From Nanobdellati archaeon (lineage in GTDB: Archaea; Nanobdellota; Nanobdellia; Woesearchaeales; GCA-2686295), in assembly GCA_014384375.1 (NCBI GenBank), contig JACNFY010000022.1:1-41472 (forward strand): DNA of 41,472 nucleotides, given 5' to 3'. The position numbers and the translations under genes were made by a program. The notes beneath the pieces were generated by a model, which searched no databases, was not told the DNA's origin, and saw only the letters and a list, made by a program, of their open reading frames with translations. Positions 2,605 to 13,427 of the stretch are shown piece by piece (the first letter of the stretch is position 1; each line of letters begins with the position of its first letter).

Positions 2605-3273
2605 ATGGCGGAATTTAAAGCAAATGTCGGAGACCCAAAGACGGGCAAGACATACAAACAAGACATTATTGGCGATGAAGCCAAACATCTTCTAGGAAAA
2701 AAGATAGGCGATAAAGTAAAAGGTGACAAGATAGGATTCTCTGGCTACGAATTTGAGATCACAGGTGGTTCTGACTCTTCAGGCTTTCCAATGAGAAAAG
2801 ATGTAAGTGGAACCATGAGGAAAAAAGTCTTAATAGCAAGTGGCGTCGGAACAAGGCATAACAGGAAAGGTATGAGACTCAGAAGAAGAGTGGCTGCAAA
2901 CACTATCCATGCAAAGACAAGCCAGATAAACATGAAAACACTAACATATGGAAAGAAAGCTTTAGATGCTGAGTCACCAAAAGAAGAAGCACCAGCAGAA
3001 GCTCCGAAAGAAGAGAAAACTGAAGAGAAGAAAGAGAAACCTCCTAAGGAAGAAGCAAAAGCAGAAGAAACCCCAAAGGAAGAAATCAAGGCAAAAGAGA
3101 AAGCTCCAAAAGAAGTCTCAGAAACAAAAGTTTCTGACGATGCTCAGAAACCAAAGGTTTCAGACAAAGCTAAAGAAAAGAAAAAAGAAGAGCCCAAAAA
3201 AGAAACTACGAAGAAAGAGAAAGTGAAGGAAGAGAAAGCTGAAAAACCTGCAAAAGAAAAGAAGAAAAAGTAA
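2605..3273 (+). CDS. rps6e: 30S ribosomal protein S6e with long charged C-terminal tail
   Basis: Residues 1 to about 125 are a standard archaeal S6e: start AEFKANVGDPKTGKTYK, a GYEFEITGGSDSSGFPMRKD block and an RKGMRLRRRVAANTI block. Archaeal S6e normally ends near residue 125-135. Here the frame continues to 222 aa with a Lys/Glu/Pro-rich, probably disordered tail (repeated KEE, PKEE and KEKAPKE units). S6e sits at the foot of the small subunit. A clear Shine-Dalgarno GGAGGA lies 6 bases before the ATG, behind a structured leader. The tail could bind RNA or protein, or be a lineage expansion. Confidence 0.93.
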   Translation: MAEFKANVGDPKTGKTYKQDIIGDEAKHLLGKKIGDKVKGDKIGFSGYEFEITGGSDSSGFPMRKDVSGTMRKKVLIASGVGTRHNRKGMRLRRRVAANTIHAKTSQINMKTLTYGKKALDAESPKEEAPAEAPKEEKTEEKKEKPPKEEAKAEETPKEEIKAKEKAPKEVSETKVSDDAQKPKVSDKAKEKKKEEPKKETTKKEKVKEEKAEKPAKEKKKK

Positions 3274-3369
3274 AGTTTCTCAATAATTTTTCTGTTTTTT
3301 AATATATTTTTCTAGCTTTTAAAATAAGAAAAGCTAATATACTACTATTTGGTAATAAAAATAGTTAGC

Positions 3370-3378: not shown

Positions 3379-3400
3379 CATTAATAATTCTTAATAAGCT

Positions 3401-3541
3401 ATGAAACACATCATCAGCGTCAGTGTTGATGAAGATACTGTCATAAAAATCCGCGAAATTCTTAGAAAAAGCAGTTGCAGGAATAAAAGCCACGTAGTAG
3501 AGGAAGCAGTGAGAAAATTCTGGGAGGGGAAAAGGAGATGA
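3401..3541 (+). CDS. 46-aa ribbon-helix-helix (CopG/Arc-like) DNA-binding protein
   Basis: The peptide begins MKHIISVSVDEDTVIKIREI, with the beta-strand (HIISVSVDE) and the first helix of the RHH fold; a second helix follows in KSHVVEEAVRKFWEG. RHH proteins dimerise and contact DNA through the paired strands, acting as repressors or as antitoxins of toxin-antitoxin pairs. It is the first gene of the kinase operon, with its own TATA box. Its TGA overlaps the ATG of the first kinase (ATGA), and GGAG just before the overlap serves the kinase. Position and size suggest an autorepressor of the operon, which is an inference. Confidence 0.75.
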   Translation: MKHIISVSVDEDTVIKIREILRKSSCRNKSHVVEEAVRKFWEGKRR

Positions 3542-5250
3542 GTCTAGAAGAAGAACTGAAAAAAGGACTTGTAAGAGAAATAAAAGTAACCCAATTCGAT
3601 TTATTTGGACAACATGAAATAACAACAGTTAAAATTCCAAAAATAAACTTAGAAATAATTGGAAAATCAATTGGATACTATGATGACTACATTGAAGGAG
3701 GAGATCCTCTTGGCAAAGAATATTTTCTTGAATTAATTGAAATAACAGGACTTTCTGAATATGACCTAAACAAATTCCATAAAGACTTAAGAATTTTTGA
3801 AAGAATATACCTTTTAAAACACGGCATTACAAATGAAATTGCTAACAGTTACTGCCCTTTGCCAATAACAGATAACGATGAGACTTTTGTTTTAGAAATA
3901 CATGGAATATCTAGAGCAAAAGCAATCGAATTCTTTCATGAAAACAATATATCACCAGAAGAAGCTTCAGAAATTATAGACGGATATGATGACAGATTTT
4001 CAGACTTAACATGTCGTATGATTGTAGAAGGATTTTCATCAAAAGTAGCAAATGCTTATCCTGAAAGATTCAATGAATGGGAAATACACACTTTATGGGG
4101 AGATGGAAAAACTCCTGGAGAAGTAAAGCTCTTCCCAGATAATTTCAAAGCCACAGATTTCACAACATTAAATTATGCAGGTGTAAATTCCAAAAACTAC
4201 TCAAAAGAAGAAATTAGAAGATTAGGAGAAATTTTCAAATTAATTGGGAATTCTTTTCCAGAGGAAATAATAGAAAAAGAGATTTCAATCATAGGTACAG
4301 GAGTAAACGGAGTTGTCATAAGTTGGAAAGAATATGCCATAAAATTCTCAAAAGAAATCCAATATGAAGCAGAATTGTTGAAAAAAGTAAAAGCTGAAAA
4401 TAAGGAATTAAATCATGTTATACAAATAATGGAAGATACACATATGCCGTTTTATTCTGAAGATTATTTGAAATTCATAAGAAGAAGAGATGAAATACTT
4501 CGAGAAGAGTATGGTCTTACAGACATAGAAGAAAGATACGAAAATAGAAGCATACTTGAAGAATATGAAGACTGGGGAATAGGTGACGAGGAGGAAGAAT
4601 TTATAGCTAAAATAGAAGACGACCTAATGGAGGAAGGACACACTTTTGCTTCAAAACATCATCCGGCTAGCGAATTGGAAAAGCAAAGAGATAAACTATA
4701 CATTTGGCTTGAAAGAATAAGTGGAGAAACATTAGAAACAATGCTTAAGAAAGAATCATTACTCATATCGCCTTTTTCTTATGGGTATGATATACTACAA
4801 GGGATTCAAGAGCTTAGAAATGCAGAAATATACCATAGAGACCTTCATGACAGGAACATCATGATAGATGAGTTTGGTGAAGCTATCATTATAGATTTAG
4901 GTGCTGCAACTACAAACCCCAATGAAGTGCATGAACAAAACAGGTTGTATGGCGGCAACAATGACTTAATTTCTTTAGGATTATTAATGTACAAAATGGC
5001 AACAGGCCACAACTTATTCAGCGACGAAAGCGGACACTCCTATAGAGAAGAAATCAAAGATAGTATCAAAACAGAAAGAGAAAAAACCTATGAAGACCCA
5101 ACACTAAAAAAAGCAATGATAAACAAAGTAAGAACAGAAGTAGAAGGAGGACTAGGAAGAATAATTATGAACTTACTAGATGATGACCTGTGGACACAAC
5201 CAAGCATGAAAAAAATTGAACAAACACAAAGAATGTTTGATGAATACTAA
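3538..5250 (+). CDS. Hanks-type protein kinase with N-terminal degenerate repeats (kinase 1)
   Basis: 570 aa. Residues about 100-240 contain degenerate copies of a roughly 30-residue unit (for example NNISPEEASEIIDGYDDRF and GFSSKVANAYPERF). Residues about 250-560 form a protein-kinase-like domain: glycine loop IGTGVNGVV (about 251), Lys in AIKFSKE (about 267), catalytic HRDLHDRN (HRD about 433, Asn about 440), and DLG instead of DFG (about 452). The C-lobe has YGGNNDLISLGLLMYKMATG. A unique acidic insert (about 300-390, with EDWGIGDEEEEF) separates the lobes. All catalytic residues are present, so it is probably active. It starts by ATGA overlap with the RHH gene. Bases 4878-5203 are identical to a part of kinase 4. 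The substrate is unknown. Confidence 0.85.
   Translation: MSLEEELKKGLVREIKVTQFDLFGQHEITTVKIPKINLEIIGKSIGYYDDYIEGGDPLGKEYFLELIEITGLSEYDLNKFHKDLRIFERIYLLKHGITNEIANSYCPLPITDNDETFVLEIHGISRAKAIEFFHENNISPEEASEIIDGYDDRFSDLTCRMIVEGFSSKVANAYPERFNEWEIHTLWGDGKTPGEVKLFPDNFKATDFTTLNYAGVNSKNYSKEEIRRLGEIFKLIGNSFPEEIIEKEISIIGTGVNGVVISWKEYAIKFSKEIQYEAELLKKVKAENKELNHVIQIMEDTHMPFYSEDYLKFIRRRDEILREEYGLTDIEERYENRSILEEYEDWGIGDEEEEFIAKIEDDLMEEGHTFASKHHPASELEKQRDKLYIWLERISGETLETMLKKESLLISPFSYGYDILQGIQELRNAEIYHRDLHDRNIMIDEFGEAIIIDLGAATTNPNEVHEQNRLYGGNNDLISLGLLMYKMATGHNLFSDESGHSYREEIKDSIKTEREKTYEDPTLKKAMINKVRTEVEGGLGRIIMNLLDDDLWTQPSMKKIEQTQRMFDEY
4878..5203 (+). repeat. 326-bp tract identical to 11511-11836 (kinase 1 / kinase 4 C-lobe)
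   Basis: Base-by-base reading finds no difference between 4878-5203 and 11511-11836 (offset 6633), although the kinases diverge strongly on either side. The tract encodes the C-lobe from the DLG motif to LDDDLWTQP. It looks like a recent gene conversion or unequal exchange between paralogues. Confidence 0.9.
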
Positions 5251-5251
5251 A

Positions 5252-6712
5252 ATGACACTAGAAAACAAACTCCTGAGAGAAGAAAAAGAAAGAGCTAGAG
5301 AAAGGTTTAGAAAGAAAGCAAGAACAGATAAAGAGCCGAGTACAAATGACTATTCTGACAGATTTGATTTACATGAAAGATGTGAACTAGCTGATGGTTA
5401 TGTGAAACCAGAGTTTGCAGATAAATACGATGAAAGATTTAGAGGACAAGGAATAGCATGGCTCGTTAGAACAGGAGTCAGCCCTGAAGAAGCATCTTCT
5501 TTTTCATCATTCTTAGGCGGAGTTGGAATAGCGAAATTAGTAGAAATCGGCATGACACCAGAGAAAGTAGATGAATACATGGTTGAAGTTTTCAATGGCT
5601 TATCCATAGTAGAATTCGTTAAAGCAGGAATAAAACCAGAACAAGCAAACAAATATGCTATGCTTACGTTTGAATATGAACATGATAGTATTCAAGATAT
5701 AATTGACTTAATAAAAGAAGGAATAACACCAGAACAAGTAAGAGAATATGATAAAAGATTCAGCATAACAGATATAATTAATTGCAATGATATTGGTCCA
5801 TCAGAAGCCAATAATTTTCCAGAAGAAGTTGAAAACTATCTGATACCACTTTTGTCGATGATCAATGTTTTGCCAAGTCAATATTCTCAAGAAAAAATAA
5901 AAGGAATAGAAAGACATCTACTTACAGTCCTATTAAACATACACGATTTAAGAAAAAATCCTGATAATTATTACTTTCTTGGAACTGGTGTAAGCGCAGC
6001 AGCTATACTGAATAGAAAAACCAACACAAGTTATAAGTGTGCTGAGAATCTAGAAACTGAGATAGAATTATTAACCAAACTAAGAGAAGAAGTAGGTGAG
6101 ACAAAAAATGTTGTTAATTATAAACAAACAATTTCAAAAAAAGATATTCATGTTATAGAAATTGAATACATAAAAGGAGACACTCTAGAAAGAAAATTGA
6201 AAGAAGAAAAGAATTTTTCATCAAAAAAAATTCTACAATACGGTTCTGATATATTGAATGGAATTCTAGAGCTAAGAAATGCAGGCATCTACCATAGAGA
6301 CCTTCATGACAGGAACATCATGATTGATGAAGATGAAGACAAAGCTGTAATCATAGACTTGGGAGCAGCAACAACCAATCCTGAAAAGAGACATCCTCTT
6401 AACAGAAGTTATGGTGGTAATAATGACTTGGTATCTCTTGGTCAATTAATATATAAGATGTATACAGGACATAACCTGTTCAACGAAGGATTTGGATATT
6501 CAGGAGCTGATGAAACAAAAGACGAAATAAAAAAAGAACGAGAAGCAGCATATGATAACCCAGAAATACTAAAAAAATACCTGAACAAAGTAAGACGAGA
6601 TGTTAAAGGAGAACTAGGAGAAACAATAGCAACAATACTAAACGACGACCTGTGGACACAACCAAGCATGGAAAAAGTAGAACAAACAATAAGAATTCTT
6701 GAACAATACTAA
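5252..6712 (+). CDS. Hanks-type protein kinase with N-terminal helical repeats (kinase 2)
   Basis: About 486 aa from the ATG at 5252, one base after the stop of kinase 1 (TAA-A-ATG); the frame is open further upstream but would overlap kinase 1. Residues about 35-200 hold the clearest repeats: YDERFRGQGIAWLVRTGVSPEEA, a GIAKLVEIGMTPEKVDEY copy, a LSIVEFVKAGIKPEQANKY copy and a DIIDLIKEGITPEQVREYD copy. The kinase domain follows: loop LGTGVSAAAI (about 243), Lys in SYKCAEN, HRDLHDRN (about 347), DLGAAT (about 368), YGGNNDL. It shares short identical nucleotide segments with kinase 1 around the catalytic loop and at the 3' end. The active-site residues are intact. The substrate is unknown. Confidence 0.85.
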   Translation: MTLENKLLREEKERARERFRKKARTDKEPSTNDYSDRFDLHERCELADGYVKPEFADKYDERFRGQGIAWLVRTGVSPEEASSFSSFLGGVGIAKLVEIGMTPEKVDEYMVEVFNGLSIVEFVKAGIKPEQANKYAMLTFEYEHDSIQDIIDLIKEGITPEQVREYDKRFSITDIINCNDIGPSEANNFPEEVENYLIPLLSMINVLPSQYSQEKIKGIERHLLTVLLNIHDLRKNPDNYYFLGTGVSAAAILNRKTNTSYKCAENLETEIELLTKLREEVGETKNVVNYKQTISKKDIHVIEIEYIKGDTLERKLKEEKNFSSKKILQYGSDILNGILELRNAGIYHRDLHDRNIMIDEDEDKAVIIDLGAATTNPEKRHPLNRSYGGNNDLVSLGQLIYKMYTGHNLFNEGFGYSGADETKDEIKKEREAAYDNPEILKKYLNKVRRDVKGELGETIATILNDDLWTQPSMEKVEQTIRILEQY

Positions 6713-6713
6713 A

Positions 6714-8003
6714 ATGACACTAGAAGAACAAACACAAGAAGAGTATGATGAAAGGTTTGACATTTTAACAAAGAGATATTTTATCAAATATGAAATTCCT
6801 CCAAAGATTGCAAACCAATATAGTCCAGAATTTGATTCATATGATATATCAGAACTCATCACTGAAAATATTCTTCCAGATAAAGCAAACAGATATGCAG
6901 AATTAAGAAAAACTAGGATATGTGATGGGTTTCATATCTCAAAATTAATTGAATGGAATTATCCTCTCAGACTAGTAGACAAATTTGATTCACGATTTCA
7001 TGGAGAAGGCATCATAAATATACTCAGAGCTGGAGGAGAACCAGAAGAAGCAAATCAATACAACCCTCGTTTTTCAGGTTACGAAATTAATCATCTTCTT
7101 ATAGCAGAATGTCCTCCTGAAATAGCCAATGAATACGAACAGAATTGGAGCGGATTTAGCATTGCAATTTTATATAGTTTAGGAATAACATCTCAAGTTT
7201 TATCTTCATTCGATGAGGAAAAAAAGAAAAGAATACATTATATTCTTAAAGGCGTCATAAGTGAGTCTGGAAAAAGAGAGAAAAGAAGTCAATATTCATT
7301 CATAGGTGTAGGTAGCCAATCAGTTATTTTACTAAAAGAAAACAATGCTTGGAAATTCTCCCAAAACATTGAAAAAGAAGCAATGACGCTCAAAAAAATA
7401 AAAAATTCTCATAATGTAATAAGAATTAAAGGAGAAGTAGAAGAAGAGTTAACAGTCAGATTAGAATACATAAAAGGTCCAACATTAGAAAAACTTATAG
7501 AAAAACAAAAAACTCTTTCATCTGAAAAAGTTTTGCAATATAGCTTAGATATCATGAACGGACTCATCGAGATGCGTAGAGCTGGCATCTTTTATCATCG
7601 TGATATTCGTCCTGCTAACATAATGATAAACGAAAAAACAGACACAGCAATAATAATCGACTTAGGTATTGCAACTACAGACAGACACGCTTTACCCTTA
7701 GACAATCGTCGCTATGGTGGACCTAATGACTTAACAAGTCTGGGTCAGGTTATGTATAAGATGGCAACCGGAAAACACCTATTCGCAAAAAGCAAATCAA
7801 TGGAGAGAACAACACAAGCAGAACAACTAAAAGACCACAGAGAATGGATATACAAAAACCCCAGAAGAGTAAATTACTACTTAGAAAAAGTAGACAAAAA
7901 CATAGCAGACAAACAACTAAACACCATAATAAAACACTGCATAAAAGCAAAAAAACACCAATATATGCAAACACAAAGAATGCTCCAACAATACACAAAA
8001 TGA
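6714..8003 (+). CDS. Hanks-type protein kinase with N-terminal helical repeats (kinase 3)
   Basis: About 429 aa from the ATG at 6714, again one base after the previous stop (TAA-A-ATG). The N-terminus MTLEEQTQEEYDERFD is shared with kinase 4. Repeats occupy about residues 15-165 (FDSRFHGEGIINILRAGGEPEEA and NPRFSGYEINHLL copies). The kinase domain has loop GVGSQSVIL (about 196), Lys in AWKFSQN, HRDIRPANIMI (about 294; RPAN is closer to the common eukaryotic-like KPEN form), DLGIATTD (about 315) and YGGPNDL. Its C-terminal third differs from kinases 1, 2 and 4, so it has escaped the conversion seen there. It ends by ATGA overlap with the TPR-kinase gene. Confidence 0.84.
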   Translation: MTLEEQTQEEYDERFDILTKRYFIKYEIPPKIANQYSPEFDSYDISELITENILPDKANRYAELRKTRICDGFHISKLIEWNYPLRLVDKFDSRFHGEGIINILRAGGEPEEANQYNPRFSGYEINHLLIAECPPEIANEYEQNWSGFSIAILYSLGITSQVLSSFDEEKKKRIHYILKGVISESGKREKRSQYSFIGVGSQSVILLKENNAWKFSQNIEKEAMTLKKIKNSHNVIRIKGEVEEELTVRLEYIKGPTLEKLIEKQKTLSSEKVLQYSLDIMNGLIEMRRAGIFYHRDIRPANIMINEKTDTAIIIDLGIATTDRHALPLDNRRYGGPNDLTSLGQVMYKMATGKHLFAKSKSMERTTQAEQLKDHREWIYKNPRRVNYYLEKVDKNIADKQLNTIIKHCIKAKKHQYMQTQRMLQQYTK

Positions 8004-10531
8004 AATTAGAAAAATTAGTTAGGAAACTGGAAGAAGTGAAAAGGGATCCTAATAGTTTTCAAACTCCTGAAGAGTTCAAACAACTAGCAGATGGTTTCTA
8101 CAGCAGCGGAAGAAGAGATATCACCATAGAAACACTTGAGATTGCAGTAGACAGAGACATAACTAACGATATGACATATTACTCCTTAGGGTTCATGCAC
8201 AATGAAACAGGAGATCACGAGAAAATCATTGAAGCATTAGAGAAAGCTGTCGAAGTTAACCAGACAAACGAGCTTATTTTCAGGATGTTATCAGATACTT
8301 ATGTTAAAACAAATAAACCTGAAAAGGCCAAAATTATATGGGAAAAAGCAGCAGAAAAAGAACAAGCAGACATCAATATGATATTTGAACTCGCATTATC
8401 ATATCAACAAGAAGGAAATCTGGAAAAAGCAATAGCAGTTTCTGAACAAGCAGTAAAATCAGGTAAAGTGGATATAAGTAAGGTAGTTAAAAAAGAGGAT
8501 TTGAATGTTCTAACAAATCTGAGTACTTTTTATCTGCAAACAGGACAATTAGAAAAAGCAGGACAACTATGTGAAAACATTCTGCAAAAAGCAGCTACGC
8601 CTGCTATAGTAATAAACCTTTCTACTGTTTATCAGTATACAGGAAATGAAAATAGAGCAATATCATTGCTTAGCAAAGCACTGAAAAAAGGATTTAAAGT
8701 AGCACCGATATATTCTCTCTTAGGTTCGCTCTTGATGACCAAAGGAAACAAGAAAGGAGCAGTCAGTTTATGGGAAGAAGCTGTTGCAATAGGAGAAACC
8801 GACTCACACATTCTATTCAACTTGCCTTTGTTTTATCTCATGATTAGAAACTATGAGAGAGCTAAGGAACTTTCTGAAATGGCAATTAGAAAAAACCAAG
8901 TCCAAACAGGAGTATTCACTAATCTTGCACAAGCATATAACATGCTAGAGAATACAGACAAAGCAATTCAAGTAGCTGAAGGAGCCATGAAGTCAGGATA
9001 CATAGAGCCATTATTGATACACAACTTGGCAGGATACTATTCATTAAAAGATGATGAAATATCTTCAATTCAGATTTTAGAAGAAGGAATTAGAATCGGA
9101 CAGGTTAGCCCAAGTATATATTCAGCTCTTTATTATTACTACGGAAAATCTGGTTATATGACAAAAGCCTTAAGCGTTTTAGATGATGCAATAGAAAAAG
9201 GTCAAAGCAATGATTGGATTTTTTCTGTGCTAACTACTTACTATAAAAACAAATCAAATCTAGAAAAAGCAAGAGAATATGCTCAAAAAGCAATAGATAT
9301 AAACCAAACTAATTCTGACATTTACTATCTGGTAGGCAGCCTCGAAATGGAAGTAGATTGGATTAGAGAGCTTGTAAACATAACCGAAAAGAACAAAACA
9401 AATATATTGGCGCCAAAACAAGGAGACATTGAATACATGTCAGAAACTAGGGAAGGCCACTTCATTCATCATCAATCAGGCCCTGACATAGTAGATGAAA
9501 AAGATTATCGTGCTTATTATTATCTATCACTTGTGGCTGGAAAGCATCCTCTAACAAAAGACAAGACTCCAGAAGATTATTTCAGGGAGATGGTTTCTCT
9601 CATGGTTCAGAACATGGACTTCCGCGTAATGACAGGCACTTACAAAAAAGCAACAAACCAGATTAAAGTAATAAGTGCTGATTCAGATCTAGAGTCAACA
9701 GTTGTCATTAAAGGATACGATACTCTAAATGTGTCTGAAATTCAGAATAGGGATATACTGGAAGACATAGTTGGAGATATAGTTGATTTGCCAAAGCATG
9801 TTATTAGCTTTGAAGAAGAAGATATGTTTTTTTATGTCATGCGCCGAGAAGGAGGTCATACACTGACTGATTTTATGAAACATCGACCTGATAGATGGGA
9901 ATCAAAAAAAACCAGTGTAAACGAACGATTACTCTTGGCAATGTCCAGGATTTATGTCGAATTTCCTGTGAAAGACCTTGAAGATTATGATTACAGGGGA
10001 AAAATCTTTGAAAAGGGTTACATTGAGAAAATACTTCCACATGCGAATCCGGTAATAGAAGCTTTCGAGCATTCAGAATACATAGGTTACTTCAGTGATT
10101 CTTGGACTGACAATTGGTTAATCAATGAAGATAAAGTTATCTTAATAGATACAGAGGACAGAGGAAAAACACCTTTTGCACTTGATCTCGCCCATTACTT
10201 AAACTGCATCCCACACGGAACATTCGAAGAAAGAATAGCATACGTAAAAAAAGCAATTGAATATGTAAACGAAACAGCTCAAGAAAAAGAAATAGACAGA
10301 ACAATAGATTATGAAGATAAATTCATGAATGAATACTACAACGGAGTCATATACAGAGCATTACTAAACACTGCAAGCAGAAGAAGAGAAAAAAGAATAG
10401 GAGATTCAAGAAAAATAGCTAAAACAGGAATAGAGATGATAGATTTCATGGAAGAACAAAAGCTAATCCCAGAAGAACATATTAATGATTACCATGTATT
10501 AAAAGAAGTGTTGGAAGTGAGTATGAAATGA
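8000..10531 (+). CDS. TPR-repeat protein fused to an aminoglycoside-phosphotransferase-like kinase domain
   Basis: 843 aa from the ATG at 8000, which overlaps the stop of kinase 3 (ATGA); the frame extends upstream but inside kinase 3. Residues about 20-480 are a run of roughly a dozen TPR units of about 34 aa (YYSLGFMHNETGDHEKIIEA, NLEKAIAVSEQAVKSG, NLEKAREYAQKAIDI). The C-terminal half resembles APH/choline-kinase folds: VVIKGYD (possible ATP lysine), MRREGGHTLTDFM, the catalytic segment SDSWTDNWLI (Asp about 699, Asn five residues on) and IDTEDRG (metal Asp about 715). The usual HGD is changed to FSD. TPRs suggest a scaffold that recruits partners, perhaps the flanking kinases. The last gene begins by ATGA overlap. 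Confidence 0.78.
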   Translation: MKLEKLVRKLEEVKRDPNSFQTPEEFKQLADGFYSSGRRDITIETLEIAVDRDITNDMTYYSLGFMHNETGDHEKIIEALEKAVEVNQTNELIFRMLSDTYVKTNKPEKAKIIWEKAAEKEQADINMIFELALSYQQEGNLEKAIAVSEQAVKSGKVDISKVVKKEDLNVLTNLSTFYLQTGQLEKAGQLCENILQKAATPAIVINLSTVYQYTGNENRAISLLSKALKKGFKVAPIYSLLGSLLMTKGNKKGAVSLWEEAVAIGETDSHILFNLPLFYLMIRNYERAKELSEMAIRKNQVQTGVFTNLAQAYNMLENTDKAIQVAEGAMKSGYIEPLLIHNLAGYYSLKDDEISSIQILEEGIRIGQVSPSIYSALYYYYGKSGYMTKALSVLDDAIEKGQSNDWIFSVLTTYYKNKSNLEKAREYAQKAIDINQTNSDIYYLVGSLEMEVDWIRELVNITEKNKTNILAPKQGDIEYMSETREGHFIHHQSGPDIVDEKDYRAYYYLSLVAGKHPLTKDKTPEDYFREMVSLMVQNMDFRVMTGTYKKATNQIKVISADSDLESTVVIKGYDTLNVSEIQNRDILEDIVGDIVDLPKHVISFEEEDMFFYVMRREGGHTLTDFMKHRPDRWESKKTSVNERLLLAMSRIYVEFPVKDLEDYDYRGKIFEKGYIEKILPHANPVIEAFEHSEYIGYFSDSWTDNWLINEDKVILIDTEDRGKTPFALDLAHYLNCIPHGTFEERIAYVKKAIEYVNETAQEKEIDRTIDYEDKFMNEYYNGVIYRALLNTASRRREKRIGDSRKIAKTGIEMIDFMEEQKLIPEEHINDYHVLKEVLEVSMK

Positions 10532-11886
10532 GCCTTGAAGAACAAACACAAGAAGAGTACGATGAAAGATTTGATGAATACGATATAGCAAATTTTCTTG
10601 GACGAATGAATTCTAATAATCCAGATCATTGGAGCAAAGACTATTCTGCATCAAATGTAAACAAATTTTCAGAAAAGTTTGATGGATTTAATATTATTGA
10701 AATAATTGACAATGAATTTTCTTCAGACTATGTAAATAGATATTCTGATTTCTACAATGGTTTGGAAGCTACTACTTTACTAGCGTTCAAATGTTCTCCA
10801 GAAGTTGCAAACGAATTTGCAAAATCAAAACTTATCAATGATCCATTCAATAATCTAAAATTTAAAGAAGACATAGATGATCTTGAAAAAGAGTATTATA
10901 TTAGAATATATAAGAATTCGGCAATAGGAGCACACATAATCGCAGAGATATATAACATAGGAGTAAAACCAGAAGAAATTCCTTCAGATGCAAAACAATT
11001 TGACCTATTAATAAACGTTGCAGAATTATTATATGACAGATATATGGATGCAGTAGAATATTTTGATGAAGTTCAAGAGACAGAAAACAATGGCGAAGTT
11101 AATACAAAATTTCTTACACCAAAAAATTGGACTTTAATAGGTTCAGGAAAAAATTCTATAACACTTCTAAGCGATGTAACATTGTCAAAATTTGGATTTA
11201 GTCTTTGGAAAGAAGAAGAACTTTTTTATATATTAGGACGAAATATTATAGAAGAACCAAGAAACGTTGTTTACAAATATTCATCAAGAAATATAGACGA
11301 AGATAGTGACACCTTAATCCAAGAAATAGAACTAGAATTTGTTGGCAATTATGCTCTTGAACAACTCGTAAAAAAGGAAAAATTTCTTTCTTATGAGAAA
11401 GTTCTCAAATACAGCTCAAACATTCTGAACGGAATCTGGGAACTCAGACAAGCAGGTATTTATCACAGAGATATACATGATAGAAACATCATAATTAACG
11501 AAGAGTATGATGAAGCTATCATTATAGATTTAGGTGCTGCAACTACAAACCCCAATGAAGTGCATGAACAAAACAGGTTGTATGGCGGCAACAATGACTT
11601 AATTTCTTTAGGATTATTAATGTACAAAATGGCAACAGGCCACAACTTATTCAGCGACGAAAGCGGACACTCCTATAGAGAAGAAATCAAAGATAGTATC
11701 AAAACAGAAAGAGAAAAAACCTATGAAGACCCAACACTAAAAAAAGCAATGATAAACAAAGTAAGAACAGAAGTAGAAGGAGGACTAGGAAGAATAATTA
11801 TGAACTTACTAGATGATGACCTGTGGACACAACCAAACATAGAACAAGTAGAACAATCAAAAAAAATGTTTCAAGCCTACCTATAA
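10528..11886 (+). CDS. Hanks-type protein kinase with short N-terminal repeat region (kinase 4)
   Basis: 452 aa. It begins MSLEEQTQEEYDERFDEYDI, nearly the same N-terminus as kinase 3, then two or three degenerate repeats (SEKFDGFNIIEIID, YNGLEATTLLAFKCSPEVANEF). Kinase motifs: GSGKNSITLL (about 205), candidate Lys in LSKFGFS, HRDIHDRNIII (about 312), DLGAATTN (about 333), YGGNNDL. From 11511 to 11836 it is identical in DNA to kinase 1. It is the last gene of the operon. Its 3' end overlaps by 10 bases the convergent AbrB-PhoU gene, so the transcripts collide. Confidence 0.84.
   Translation: MSLEEQTQEEYDERFDEYDIANFLGRMNSNNPDHWSKDYSASNVNKFSEKFDGFNIIEIIDNEFSSDYVNRYSDFYNGLEATTLLAFKCSPEVANEFAKSKLINDPFNNLKFKEDIDDLEKEYYIRIYKNSAIGAHIIAEIYNIGVKPEEIPSDAKQFDLLINVAELLYDRYMDAVEYFDEVQETENNGEVNTKFLTPKNWTLIGSGKNSITLLSDVTLSKFGFSLWKEEELFYILGRNIIEEPRNVVYKYSSRNIDEDSDTLIQEIELEFVGNYALEQLVKKEKFLSYEKVLKYSSNILNGIWELRQAGIYHRDIHDRNIIINEEYDEAIIIDLGAATTNPNEVHEQNRLYGGNNDLISLGLLMYKMATGHNLFSDESGHSYREEIKDSIKTEREKTYEDPTLKKAMINKVRTEVEGGLGRIIMNLLDDDLWTQPNIEQVEQSKKMFQAYL
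11511..11836 (+). repeat. second copy of the 326-bp identical kinase tract
   Basis: It is identical to 4878-5203. Just upstream (GAAGAGTATGA against GAGTTTGG) and downstream (ACATAGAACAA against GCATGAAAAAA) the genes diverge at once, so the borders are sharp, as expected of a conversion tract. Confidence 0.9.
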
Positions 11887-12827
11887 TCCTCAAACAAAGT
11901 AATATGCGCTTCTGAGAAATCATTTATAGTGTCTAGGATTATATTGCATTCACTTATTACTTTCAGTTCTTCTTCGTTGAACTTCTCTGTATTAACTCTG
12001 TTTACCAAATCATACCTCTTCCTTATTAATTTATTTAGATCTTCCACTGGATAATTCTTCTTGTTTATCATCTCAAACTGCTCAATAAACAAGTCAAATA
12101 TTTCCTTAACATACTTTTTTATCTTTGGAGTTATCTTTTTCATCTCTTCAACTCGTTCACTTGTATGTCTAACTTTATCGATTATTTTGTCTATGATGAC
12201 AATAAGCCCAAACATTCTGATTTTCTTGTTTTCTGACCATTCTGAAAAATTAAGGAGACGTAGATAGTAAGCGGAGAACTTGACTATACTGTCATGATAG
12301 TCATATGATTTATCGTGAAACTTTTTGAAATCATCATCCATCGCTAGAACAAACTCATCAAAAAATTCTTTTATCAGGAAATATATCCTGTTTTGGGTAA
12401 CACTTGTCTTCTCCCATTCCTCTTTTGTGATTAAGCTTTGAAGAACTATTTTATTAGTCGCTCTGGATATGATCTCTAATCCAATGAATCTCTCTATTAC
12501 CTTTCTAACATACCTGTGTATCCTAATGTCCTTATTATACTTGTAATCAGGAATTGTTTCTTTTGTGAATTTAAGCACTATTTCTTCCACACCCTGTCTG
12601 TAGAACTCATCCAAGTGCCTGTTTAGCATATGCTTGTTAAAACCATCAATATTCAGATTTACCCTCTTTATTTTCTTAATGAAAGTCTTAGATGAAATTA
12701 TAAGATTACGCCCCTGTTCTGTCACTTCAACTTCCTTACCTGACTTCAAACCGTATTTTTTTACCCACTTACTCGGCAGGCTAACAGTAAGCGTGTTCTT
12801 CCCCACTCTGTTGACTTTTCTTTTCAT
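11877..12827 (-). CDS. AbrB-domain / PhoU-domain transcription regulator
   Basis: 316 aa. Residues 1-45 form a SpoVT-AbrB swapped-hairpin DNA-binding domain (MKRKVNRVGKNTLTVSLPSK, VKKYGLKSGKEVEV). The rest is helical with PhoU-like charged segments (IKEFFDEFVLAMDDDFKKFH, GLIVIIDKIIDKVRHTSERV). Archaea often fuse these domains, and such proteins are thought to control phosphate uptake or other stress genes. No pst or phosphate gene is nearby, so the target is open. It converges on and overlaps the kinase operon by 10 bases and is divergent from the Lrp-like gene, so it might control either; that is inference. Confidence 0.8.
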   Translation of the reverse strand: MKRKVNRVGKNTLTVSLPSKWVKKYGLKSGKEVEVTEQGRNLIISSKTFIKKIKRVNLNIDGFNKHMLNRHLDEFYRQGVEEIVLKFTKETIPDYKYNKDIRIHRYVRKVIERFIGLEIISRATNKIVLQSLITKEEWEKTSVTQNRIYFLIKEFFDEFVLAMDDDFKKFHDKSYDYHDSIVKFSAYYLRLLNFSEWSENKKIRMFGLIVIIDKIIDKVRHTSERVEEMKKITPKIKKYVKEIFDLFIEQFEMINKKNYPVEDLNKLIRKRYDLVNRVNTEKFNEEELKVISECNIILDTINDFSEAHITLFEDYR

Positions 12828-12965: not shown

Positions 12966-13427
12966 ATGAAAGAAACTGATAAGCAAATACTCAAACATTT
13001 GAGAAGAAACGCAAGGGATAGCATAACAAACATATCGAGAAGAACAGGAATACCGACATCAACGGTTTTCCTGAAAATCAGGGACCACGAAAATTCAATT
13101 ATCAAGAAACACACATCACTGATAGACTACTCAAAGCTCGGCTACAACTATTGGCAGAAAACAGTGCTAAAACTGGCAGAGTGCTACAACGAAGAATTCG
13201 AGCAATACCTGCTAGAACACCAAAATGTCAACTCAGCATACCAGATAAATAGCGGATACGATTACCTGATTGAGACAGTACACAAGAACATCAAGGAATA
13301 TACGGACTTCATTAGAAAACTGGAAACAAAATTCAAGATTGAAGAAAAGAAAGAATTCCAGATCATAAACGACCTGAAAAGAGAAAGTTTCCTAACAAAA
13401 AATCTGGAAGATTTCCGGAGTGAATAA
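12966..13427 (+). CDS. Lrp/AsnC-family transcription regulator
   Basis: 153 aa. The N-terminal HTH (KETDKQILKHLRRNARDSIT, NISRRTGIPTSTVFLKI) is typical of Lrp/AsnC, with the recognition helix at about residues 33-45. The C-terminal part (LKLAECYNEEFEQYLLEHQNV, NSAYQINSGYDYLIETVHKN) matches the RAM effector-binding domain (strand, helix, GxYD). Lrp proteins sense amino acids. The gene stands 114 bases upstream of the putative amino-acid ligase/epimerase cluster, on the same strand, and may regulate it. It is divergent from the AbrB-PhoU gene. Confidence 0.85.
   Translation: MKETDKQILKHLRRNARDSITNISRRTGIPTSTVFLKIRDHENSIIKKHTSLIDYSKLGYNYWQKTVLKLAECYNEEFEQYLLEHQNVNSAYQINSGYDYLIETVHKNIKEYTDFIRKLETKFKIEEKKEFQIINDLKRESFLTKNLEDFRSE

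What the first reader, a model, noticed from the sequence alone, without database searches (positions are those of the whole stretch)
3401..11886. RHH regulator plus four repeat-kinases and a TPR-phosphotransferase kinase in one coupled operon
Six genes run without gaps (ATGA, TAA-A-ATG, TAA-A-ATG, ATGA, ATGA). Four are Hanks-type kinases with complete HRDxxxxN and DLG residues behind an unusual N-terminal repeat. The fifth joins about a dozen TPRs to an APH-like kinase, and the first is a 46-aa RHH protein. Five kinases in one operon is exceptional for a small archaeal genome. I know of no described system with this layout. Candidate roles: a phospho-signalling relay on a TPR scaffold, control of a toxin-like kinase by an RHH partner, or defence or contact with a host.
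Basis: partly seen in the sequence, partly recalled or inferred. Interest (0 to 1): 0.85.

Follow-up and report, generated by a model that had tools for sequence, protein, structure and literature searches.

The report
Archaeal kinase operon paired with regulator
A small-genome (Woesearchaeota-type) archaeon carries six overlapping genes encoding four repeat-bearing protein kinases, a TPR-armed phosphotransferase and a tiny DNA-binding protein; related kinase clusters recur in about 7% of the genomes of its order, usually tail-to-tail with one subfamily of DNA-binding regulator, which points to an undescribed archaeal phospho-signalling module.

Summary
Six genes (3401-11886) overlap or abut: a 46-aa RHH protein, kinases K1-K3, a TPR+APH-fold phosphotransferase, and kinase K4. 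All four kinases keep their catalytic residues. The N-terminal repeat is a 24-25-aa helical unit with no Pfam match; AlphaFold2 models it confidently. It is not a one-strain oddity. Related repeat proteins (nearly all kinases) occur in 24 of 353 genomes of the order, often 2-4 in tandem, but in none of five congeners. Its subfamily co-occurs with repeat kinases (15 of 17 genomes with it, 9 of 336 without). In several families the block sits next to the same Lrp gene, and in some also eS6. Recurrent extras are TPR-APH proteins, HAD phosphatases and the RHH gene; RHH promoters from different families share an operator-like palindrome. Best reading: a phospho-signalling locus, autoregulated through RHH and functionally linked to an AbrB-PhoU regulator. 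Co-inheritance is well supported; phosphorylation and its targets are inferred. A kinase-toxin defence role remains a rival. New variant of a known kind.

The parts
3340..3358 (+). operator-like palindrome TACTACTATTTGGTAATAA, about 43-61 bases upstream of the RHH start
   Evidence: conserved in RHH promoters of 5 loci (score 48 against shuffles 24.8 +- 2.2, maximum 33) and seen as ACTACTTTTCAGTAGT in a sixth locus fetched later (L171); not unique in the genome
3370..3378 (+). TATA box TTTATAAAT centred 27 bases before the ATG (possibly leaderless transcript)
   Evidence: read from sequence; same position in sister loci
3381..3397 (+). direct repeat TTAATAA-ttc-TTAATAA between TATA box and start codon, possible second RHH site
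3401..3541 (+). RHH (CopG-type) mini-protein, 46 aa
   Evidence: PF01402 just above cut-off; orthologues at the head of the cluster in L060, L063, L064, L070, L073, L171
3538..5250 (+). K1, repeat + Hanks kinase, 570 aa
   Evidence: Pkinase 1.7e-15; close relative in G007 (L057)
4878..5203 (+). 326-bp stretch identical to 11511-11836 (K1/K4 conversion or duplication tract)
5252..6712 (+). K2, repeat + Hanks kinase, 486 aa
   Evidence: Pkinase 5.3e-19; 6 repeat units
6714..8003 (+). K3, repeat + Hanks kinase, 429 aa
   Evidence: Pkinase 4.6e-20; AlphaFold2 pLDDT 88; 58-60% identical kinase domain in G007
8000..10531 (+). TPR array + APH-fold phosphotransferase, 843 aa
   Evidence: TPR families; Foldseek APH(3')-Ia 1.4e-8; D, N and DTED residues mostly kept in relatives
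10528..11886 (+). K4, repeat + Hanks kinase, 452 aa; mosaic (5' 47 nt 89% like K3, 3' 432 nt 93% like K1)
11511..11836 (+). second copy of the 326-bp identical tract
11877..12827 (-). AbrB-domain regulator of the AbrB-PhoU family, 316 aa, tail-to-tail with K4
   Evidence: PF04014 7.6e-8; kinase-linked clade in tree; co-occurrence
12966..13427 (+). Lrp/AsnC-type regulator, conserved flank of the site
   Evidence: PF13404/PF01037; adjacent to the AbrB-PhoU gene in most sister loci
2605..3273 (+). ribosomal protein eS6, conserved upstream flank in part of the loci (not part of the module)
   Evidence: PF01092; L057, L060, L066, L125, L171

Best explanation
A phospho-signalling locus. The RHH mini-protein represses its own operon at the palindrome and repeat around the TATA box. 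The operon makes several Hanks kinases whose N-terminal helical solenoids bind different inputs or substrates while the kinase halves stay alike, helped by recombination between copies, plus a TPR-APH phosphotransferase; sister loci add a HAD phosphatase. The AbrB-PhoU-family DNA-binding protein encoded tail-to-tail is functionally tied to the kinases, most simply as their transcriptional output (its activity set by phosphorylation) or as the regulator of the locus. Shown: gene content, intact and conserved active sites, purifying selection, recurrence, co-inheritance with this AbrB-PhoU subfamily, conserved operator-like DNA. Inferred: that the kinases are active, what they sense, that AbrB-PhoU is substrate or controller, that RHH binds the motif.
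For: Catalytic Gly, Lys, Glu, HRD His and Asp, Asn and DFG Asp are invariant in 21 homologues. pN is well below pS between K1/K3 and their G007 relatives. 24 of 353 genomes of the order have a match at E<=1e-20, often 2-4 kinases in tandem. 15 of 17 genomes with the AbrB-PhoU subfamily (E<=1e-56; next value 1.9e-33) have it, against 9 of 336 others; of the two exceptions, G128 has a TPR/APH-like protein next to it and G283 an ATP-grasp protein. In the AbrB-PhoU tree 11 of 12 members of a fully supported clade adjoin repeat kinases; the clade spans at least 8 families, and the label is more clustered than in 500 shuffles. G329, first found in the phylum-wide search, shows the same arrangement. 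In congener G002 the eS6-Lrp site holds one PLP-enzyme gene and a diverged AbrB-PhoU (28% id) although Lrp is 65% identical, so kinases and their AbrB-PhoU change together. HAD-type genes lie near repeat kinases in 9 of 28 loci (10 of 95 near genes against 4 of 717). Shared RHH promoter motif. TPR-APH-type proteins also in G246 (L064+L170), G211 (L171) and G043 (L066).
Against: No biochemistry. Convergent orientation means no shared transcript between kinases and AbrB-PhoU. Several kinase genomes (G250, G089, G056, G043, G179, G087, G023) lack this subfamily; some have a more distant AbrB-PhoU instead and G250 and G089 none adjacent. Pfam PhoU does not match the window protein itself; the name rests on homology to paralogue L182 (26% id, E 1e-16), whose locus does match PF01895. 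The window operon has no phosphatase. HAD enzymes often act on small molecules. The operator-like motif has other genomic copies not at RHH genes.
Confidence: 0.5

Rival explanations
1. A kinase-based defence or toxin-antitoxin-like module: the kinases are kept off (by RHH repression, AbrB-PhoU or a phosphatase) and stop growth when triggered by a virus, as in the KKP module.
For: Patchy distribution and turnover at fixed sites, several kinases with phosphatases in sister loci, an AbrB/MazE-fold partner, matches to PD-T4-6, MAD6 and PglW kinase models, fast-evolving repeat in K3. KKP is a precedent (PMC11341870).
Against: The PADLOC/NCBIfam matches cover only the generic kinase core and lie far below NCBIfam cut-offs. 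HAD, not PP2C, phosphatases; no FHA or CSD domain. The locus lies among core genes (eS6, Lrp), with no integrase seen in the operon or its immediate flanks; no relatives in the phage collection or viral contigs. RHH has no antitoxin tail.
Confidence: 0.22
2. The AbrB-PhoU gene is only a syntenic neighbour. The kinase array is an independent, locally amplified kinase family in a permissive convergent site.
For: Convergent genes need not be functionally linked; the Lrp-AbrB-PhoU pair also exists elsewhere without kinases (L182, L184, L185); L065 and L067 have kinases without it.
Against: One AbrB-PhoU subfamily tracks the kinases across families; kinases and AbrB-PhoU change together while Lrp stays; AbrB-PhoU paralogues are tail-to-tail with a neighbour in 46 of 60 cases (about 18 of 26 among loci picked by AbrB-PhoU alone, my count) against 34% of other genes.
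Confidence: 0.2
3. Host- or symbiont-contact effectors of a DPANN archaeon.
Against: No obvious signal peptide or membrane segment in the window proteins (by eye, no predictor run); operon with RHH and convergent DNA-binding gene points to intracellular regulation.
Confidence: 0.08

Closest known systems
Archaeal eukaryotic-like protein kinases with TPR (Sulfolobus SiRe_2030, SiRe_2056) and kinases acting on ArnA/ArnB (PMC5682000)
   Same: Hanks kinases, some with TPR, phosphorylating each other and transcription regulators
   Different: not described there as a tandem array with RHH, a different repeat, a TPR-APH protein and a convergent AbrB-PhoU gene
KKP kinase-kinase-phosphatase module of prophages (PMC11341870)
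   Same: several Ser/Thr kinases, a phosphatase in sister loci, a DNA-binding protein as possible target
   Different: PP2C phosphatase, CSD/FHA kinases, prophage-borne, bacterial; here HAD, helical repeats, core-genome site
PD-T4-6 / MAD6 / PglW defence kinases (PADLOC, NCBIfam)
   Same: Hanks kinase core
   Different: similarity limited to the kinase core, below NCBIfam cut-offs; accessory domains and partners absent
Archaeal AbrB-PhoU (PhoU-family) transcription regulators
   Same: AbrB DNA-binding domain plus helical domain, many paralogues per genome
   Different: kinase-linked subfamily, PhoU profile no longer recognisable, tail-to-tail with a kinase array
Aminoglycoside/choline-type phosphotransferases (APH)
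   Same: fold and most catalytic residues of the fifth protein
   Different: fused to about 12 TPRs; HRD histidine replaced; substrate unknown

Membership tests
Hanks-type Ser/Thr protein kinases (K1-K4) | Pkinase profile over cut-off | tested here: met
   all four over 31.7 bits
Hanks-type Ser/Thr protein kinases (K1-K4) | Gly loop, VAIK Lys, alphaC Glu, HRD, Asn, DFG Asp | tested here: met
   invariant in A2; motifs
Hanks-type Ser/Thr protein kinases (K1-K4) | protein kinase activity on Ser/Thr | not testable with these tools
   needs assay
APH-fold phosphotransferase (8000-10531) | Pfam APH profile over cut-off | tested here: inconclusive
   not among the 25 of 29 families shown for this protein; relative L066 matches at 1.2e-7
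APH-fold phosphotransferase (8000-10531) | APH fold and catalytic Asp/Asn/Asp | tested here: met
   Foldseek E 1.4e-8; SDSWTDN and IDTED
RHH/CopG DNA-binding proteins | RHH_1 profile | tested here: met
   21.0 bits, cut-off 20.5
RHH antitoxin of a toxin-antitoxin pair | C-terminal toxin-binding extension beyond the RHH fold | tested here: not met
   46-49 aa in seven loci, fold only
AbrB-PhoU regulators (11877-12827) | AbrB/MazE domain | tested here: met
   PF04014 in 22 of 22 members
AbrB-PhoU regulators (11877-12827) | PhoU profile PF01895 | tested here: not met
   0 of 22 members; met only at the paralogous locus G000:C2, whose protein is 26% identical
KKP module | PP2C phosphatase followed by two kinases, FHA/CSD domains | tested here: not met
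   no PP2C, FHA or CSD matches in the scanned window proteins; definition
PD-T4-6 / MADS / BREX kinases | full-length family match and partner genes | tested here: not met
   kinase-core matches only, below NCBIfam cut-offs

The most novel reading that the evidence does not exclude
The order uses AbrB-PhoU regulators as a general signalling platform: each paralogue is paired tail-to-tail with its own large, exchangeable partner (repeat-kinase arrays, TPR-APH, guanylate-kinase-like or ATP-grasp proteins), a two-gene regulator-sensor logic in archaea different from two-component systems, with repeat kinases diversified by recombination between copies.
Probability: 0.3. Interest if true: 0.82.

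Novelty: new variant of a known kind. Interest (0 to 1): 0.62.

Why it matters
Very little is known of how small-genome archaea sense and respond, and few archaeal kinases have known targets. This locus offers a bounded, testable set: kinases, a possible output regulator next door, a possible operator, and natural genomes with and without it. If AbrB-PhoU proteins are outputs of adjacent phosphotransferases, a common archaeal regulator family gains a mechanism. The repeat also defines a new helical recognition module without a Pfam model.

Tried and rejected
Viral origin: no match in the phage records or viral contigs. Spread beyond the order: two weak matches in the same class only. RHH paralogues elsewhere in the genome: none. 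Ungapped test of promoter conservation anchored at the ATG was not significant; allowing +-2 bases of offset it was, so the result depends on that choice, though a further locus later showed the motif. The operator-like motif is not specific: other exact matches in the genome are not at RHH genes. Literature searches gave no paper describing this layout; subscription papers are not covered. A first regular expression for HRD motifs was wrong and was replaced. The Fisher values treat genomes and genes as independent, which related genomes are not.
Full report
Check of the observation. Pfam confirms an RHH protein, four Hanks kinases and a TPR protein; the APH-like end of the TPR protein is supported by a model and a fold match rather than by Pfam. 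The genome is 1.27 Mb, 95% complete. Its only other Pkinase matches are a 192-aa protein that reads like Bud32 and a weak 196-aa match.

Anatomy. Each kinase is an N-terminal array of a 24-25-aa unit, consensus YDKRFSGEDIIELIKAGISPEKAN, and a C-terminal kinase domain. The unit has no Pfam match. The AlphaFold2 model of K3 (21 sequences, pLDDT 88) shows a helix-short-helix solenoid followed by a kinase fold closest to Stk1/PknB. Catalytic positions are invariant in 21 homologues. Selection is purifying; in K3 the repeat is 30% and the kinase 60% identical to the closest relative in G007, while in K1 the two parts are alike (45% and 43%).

Recombination. K1 and K4 share a 326-bp identical tract. 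K4 starts like K3 (47 nt, 89%) and ends like K1 (432 nt, 93%). Similar high 3' identity between neighbours occurs in L060 (86% over 315 nt) and L061 (89% over 538 nt). Contigs of G007 break inside kinase genes with 141- and 136-bp shared ends, as near-identical copies would cause. An assembly chimera in the window is not excluded.

Distribution. In all 353 held genomes of the order, 24 match the kinase alignment at E<=1e-20, one of them (G151) by the repeat alone in a lipoprotein-like protein. None of five congeners matches, and one of two genomes of the sister genus does (G007). The public records behind 12 of the loci are titled Woesearchaeota, Nanoarchaeota or Nanoarchaeia. Outside the order, weak matches are two; none is viral.

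Neighbourhood. The flank convergent with K4 is an AbrB-domain protein, then an Lrp-type gene. Both recur beside repeat kinases in many families; eS6 lies upstream in some (L057, L066, and further off in L060 and L171). In congener G002 the site reads eS6, one PLP-enzyme gene, a diverged AbrB-PhoU, Lrp. The Lrp there is 65% identical but the AbrB-PhoU only 28%, whereas in G007, which has the kinases, they are 71% and 58%.

Co-inheritance. The AbrB-PhoU family is multicopy. One subfamily, separated by a wide gap in E-value (1e-56 against 2e-33), tracks the kinases: 15 of 17 genomes against 9 of 336. In the tree it is a fully supported clade of 12, 11 next to repeat kinases. The two exceptions hold a TPR/APH-like protein (G128) and an ATP-grasp protein (G283) at the same position. 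G329, which came up only in the phylum-wide search, has three kinase genes tail-to-tail with this AbrB-PhoU, then Lrp. Kinase genomes without the subfamily exist, so the link is strong but not absolute.

Recurrent extras. TPR-APH-type proteins stand in the same clusters in G246 (split over L064 and L170), G211 and G043. HAD phosphatase-type genes lie within two genes of repeat kinases in 9 of 28 loci. RHH orthologues head the cluster in L060, L063, L064, L070, L073 and L171, always 46-49 aa.

Promoter. Five RHH upstream regions share a palindrome TACTACTTTATRGTAGT, a TATA box and a TTAATAA repeat (score 48, shuffles 24.8 +- 2.2, maximum 33). L171, fetched afterwards, has ACTACTTTTCAGTAGT, GCTTTATAAAT and TTATTAATTCTTATTAAT. 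The palindrome also occurs elsewhere in the genome away from RHH genes, so RHH binding is a proposal.

Name of the regulator. Pfam sees the AbrB domain in 22 of 22 members and PhoU in none. The genome's PF01895 match lies in the paralogue L182, which also sits beside an Lrp gene and is 26% identical to the window protein. AbrB-PhoU is therefore a family name by homology.

Mechanism. I take the locus to be a phospho-signalling module: RHH keeps the operon in check, solenoids give the kinases their specificity, the TPR-APH protein is a further phosphotransferase and possible scaffold, and AbrB-PhoU is output or controller. Gene content, conservation and co-inheritance are shown; activity, input, substrates and RHH binding are inferred. 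The main rivals are a kinase-toxin defence module like KKP and an unlinked neighbour.

Comparison. Sulfolobus kinases with TPR and kinases acting on ArnA/ArnB are the nearest archaeal precedent (PMC5682000). KKP is the nearest multi-kinase module (PMC11341870), but its defining PP2C, FHA and CSD features are not met. I found no paper describing this layout in the library searched.

Noticed in passing
L101-L124, L136, L139 (genomes of the order): AbrB-PhoU paralogues are often tail-to-tail with large variable partners: guanylate-kinase-like P-loop proteins, some with a receiver domain, APH-like and other proteins.
   Followed up: partly
L082:1345-2691 and L090:9180-10175: The kinase repeat also forms most of two lipoprotein-like proteins without a kinase domain; a 6368-aa open frame in G171 matches it too.
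   Followed up: partly
L083:1546-1990: Three tandem RHH mini-genes of 46-59 aa, near-copies of each other.
   Followed up: no
L061:8558-9973 and L059:3096-4505: Inositol-monophosphatase-type domain fused to a HAD phosphatase inside kinase clusters.
   Followed up: no
L064:1832-4243: A kinase with a long non-repeat N-terminal region that looks beta-propeller-like by eye, in the same kind of cluster.
   Followed up: no
window:29877-30467: 196-aa partial protein-kinase-like protein beside a methyltransferase-like gene, weak Pkinase match.
   Followed up: no
L182:4616-6158, L184, L185: A second, widely kept divergent pair Lrp / AbrB-PhoU without kinases, in the window's genome and congeners.
   Followed up: partly
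L169:1333-12632: Three AbrB-PhoU genes within 11 kb in G283, one with an ATP-grasp partner.
   Followed up: no
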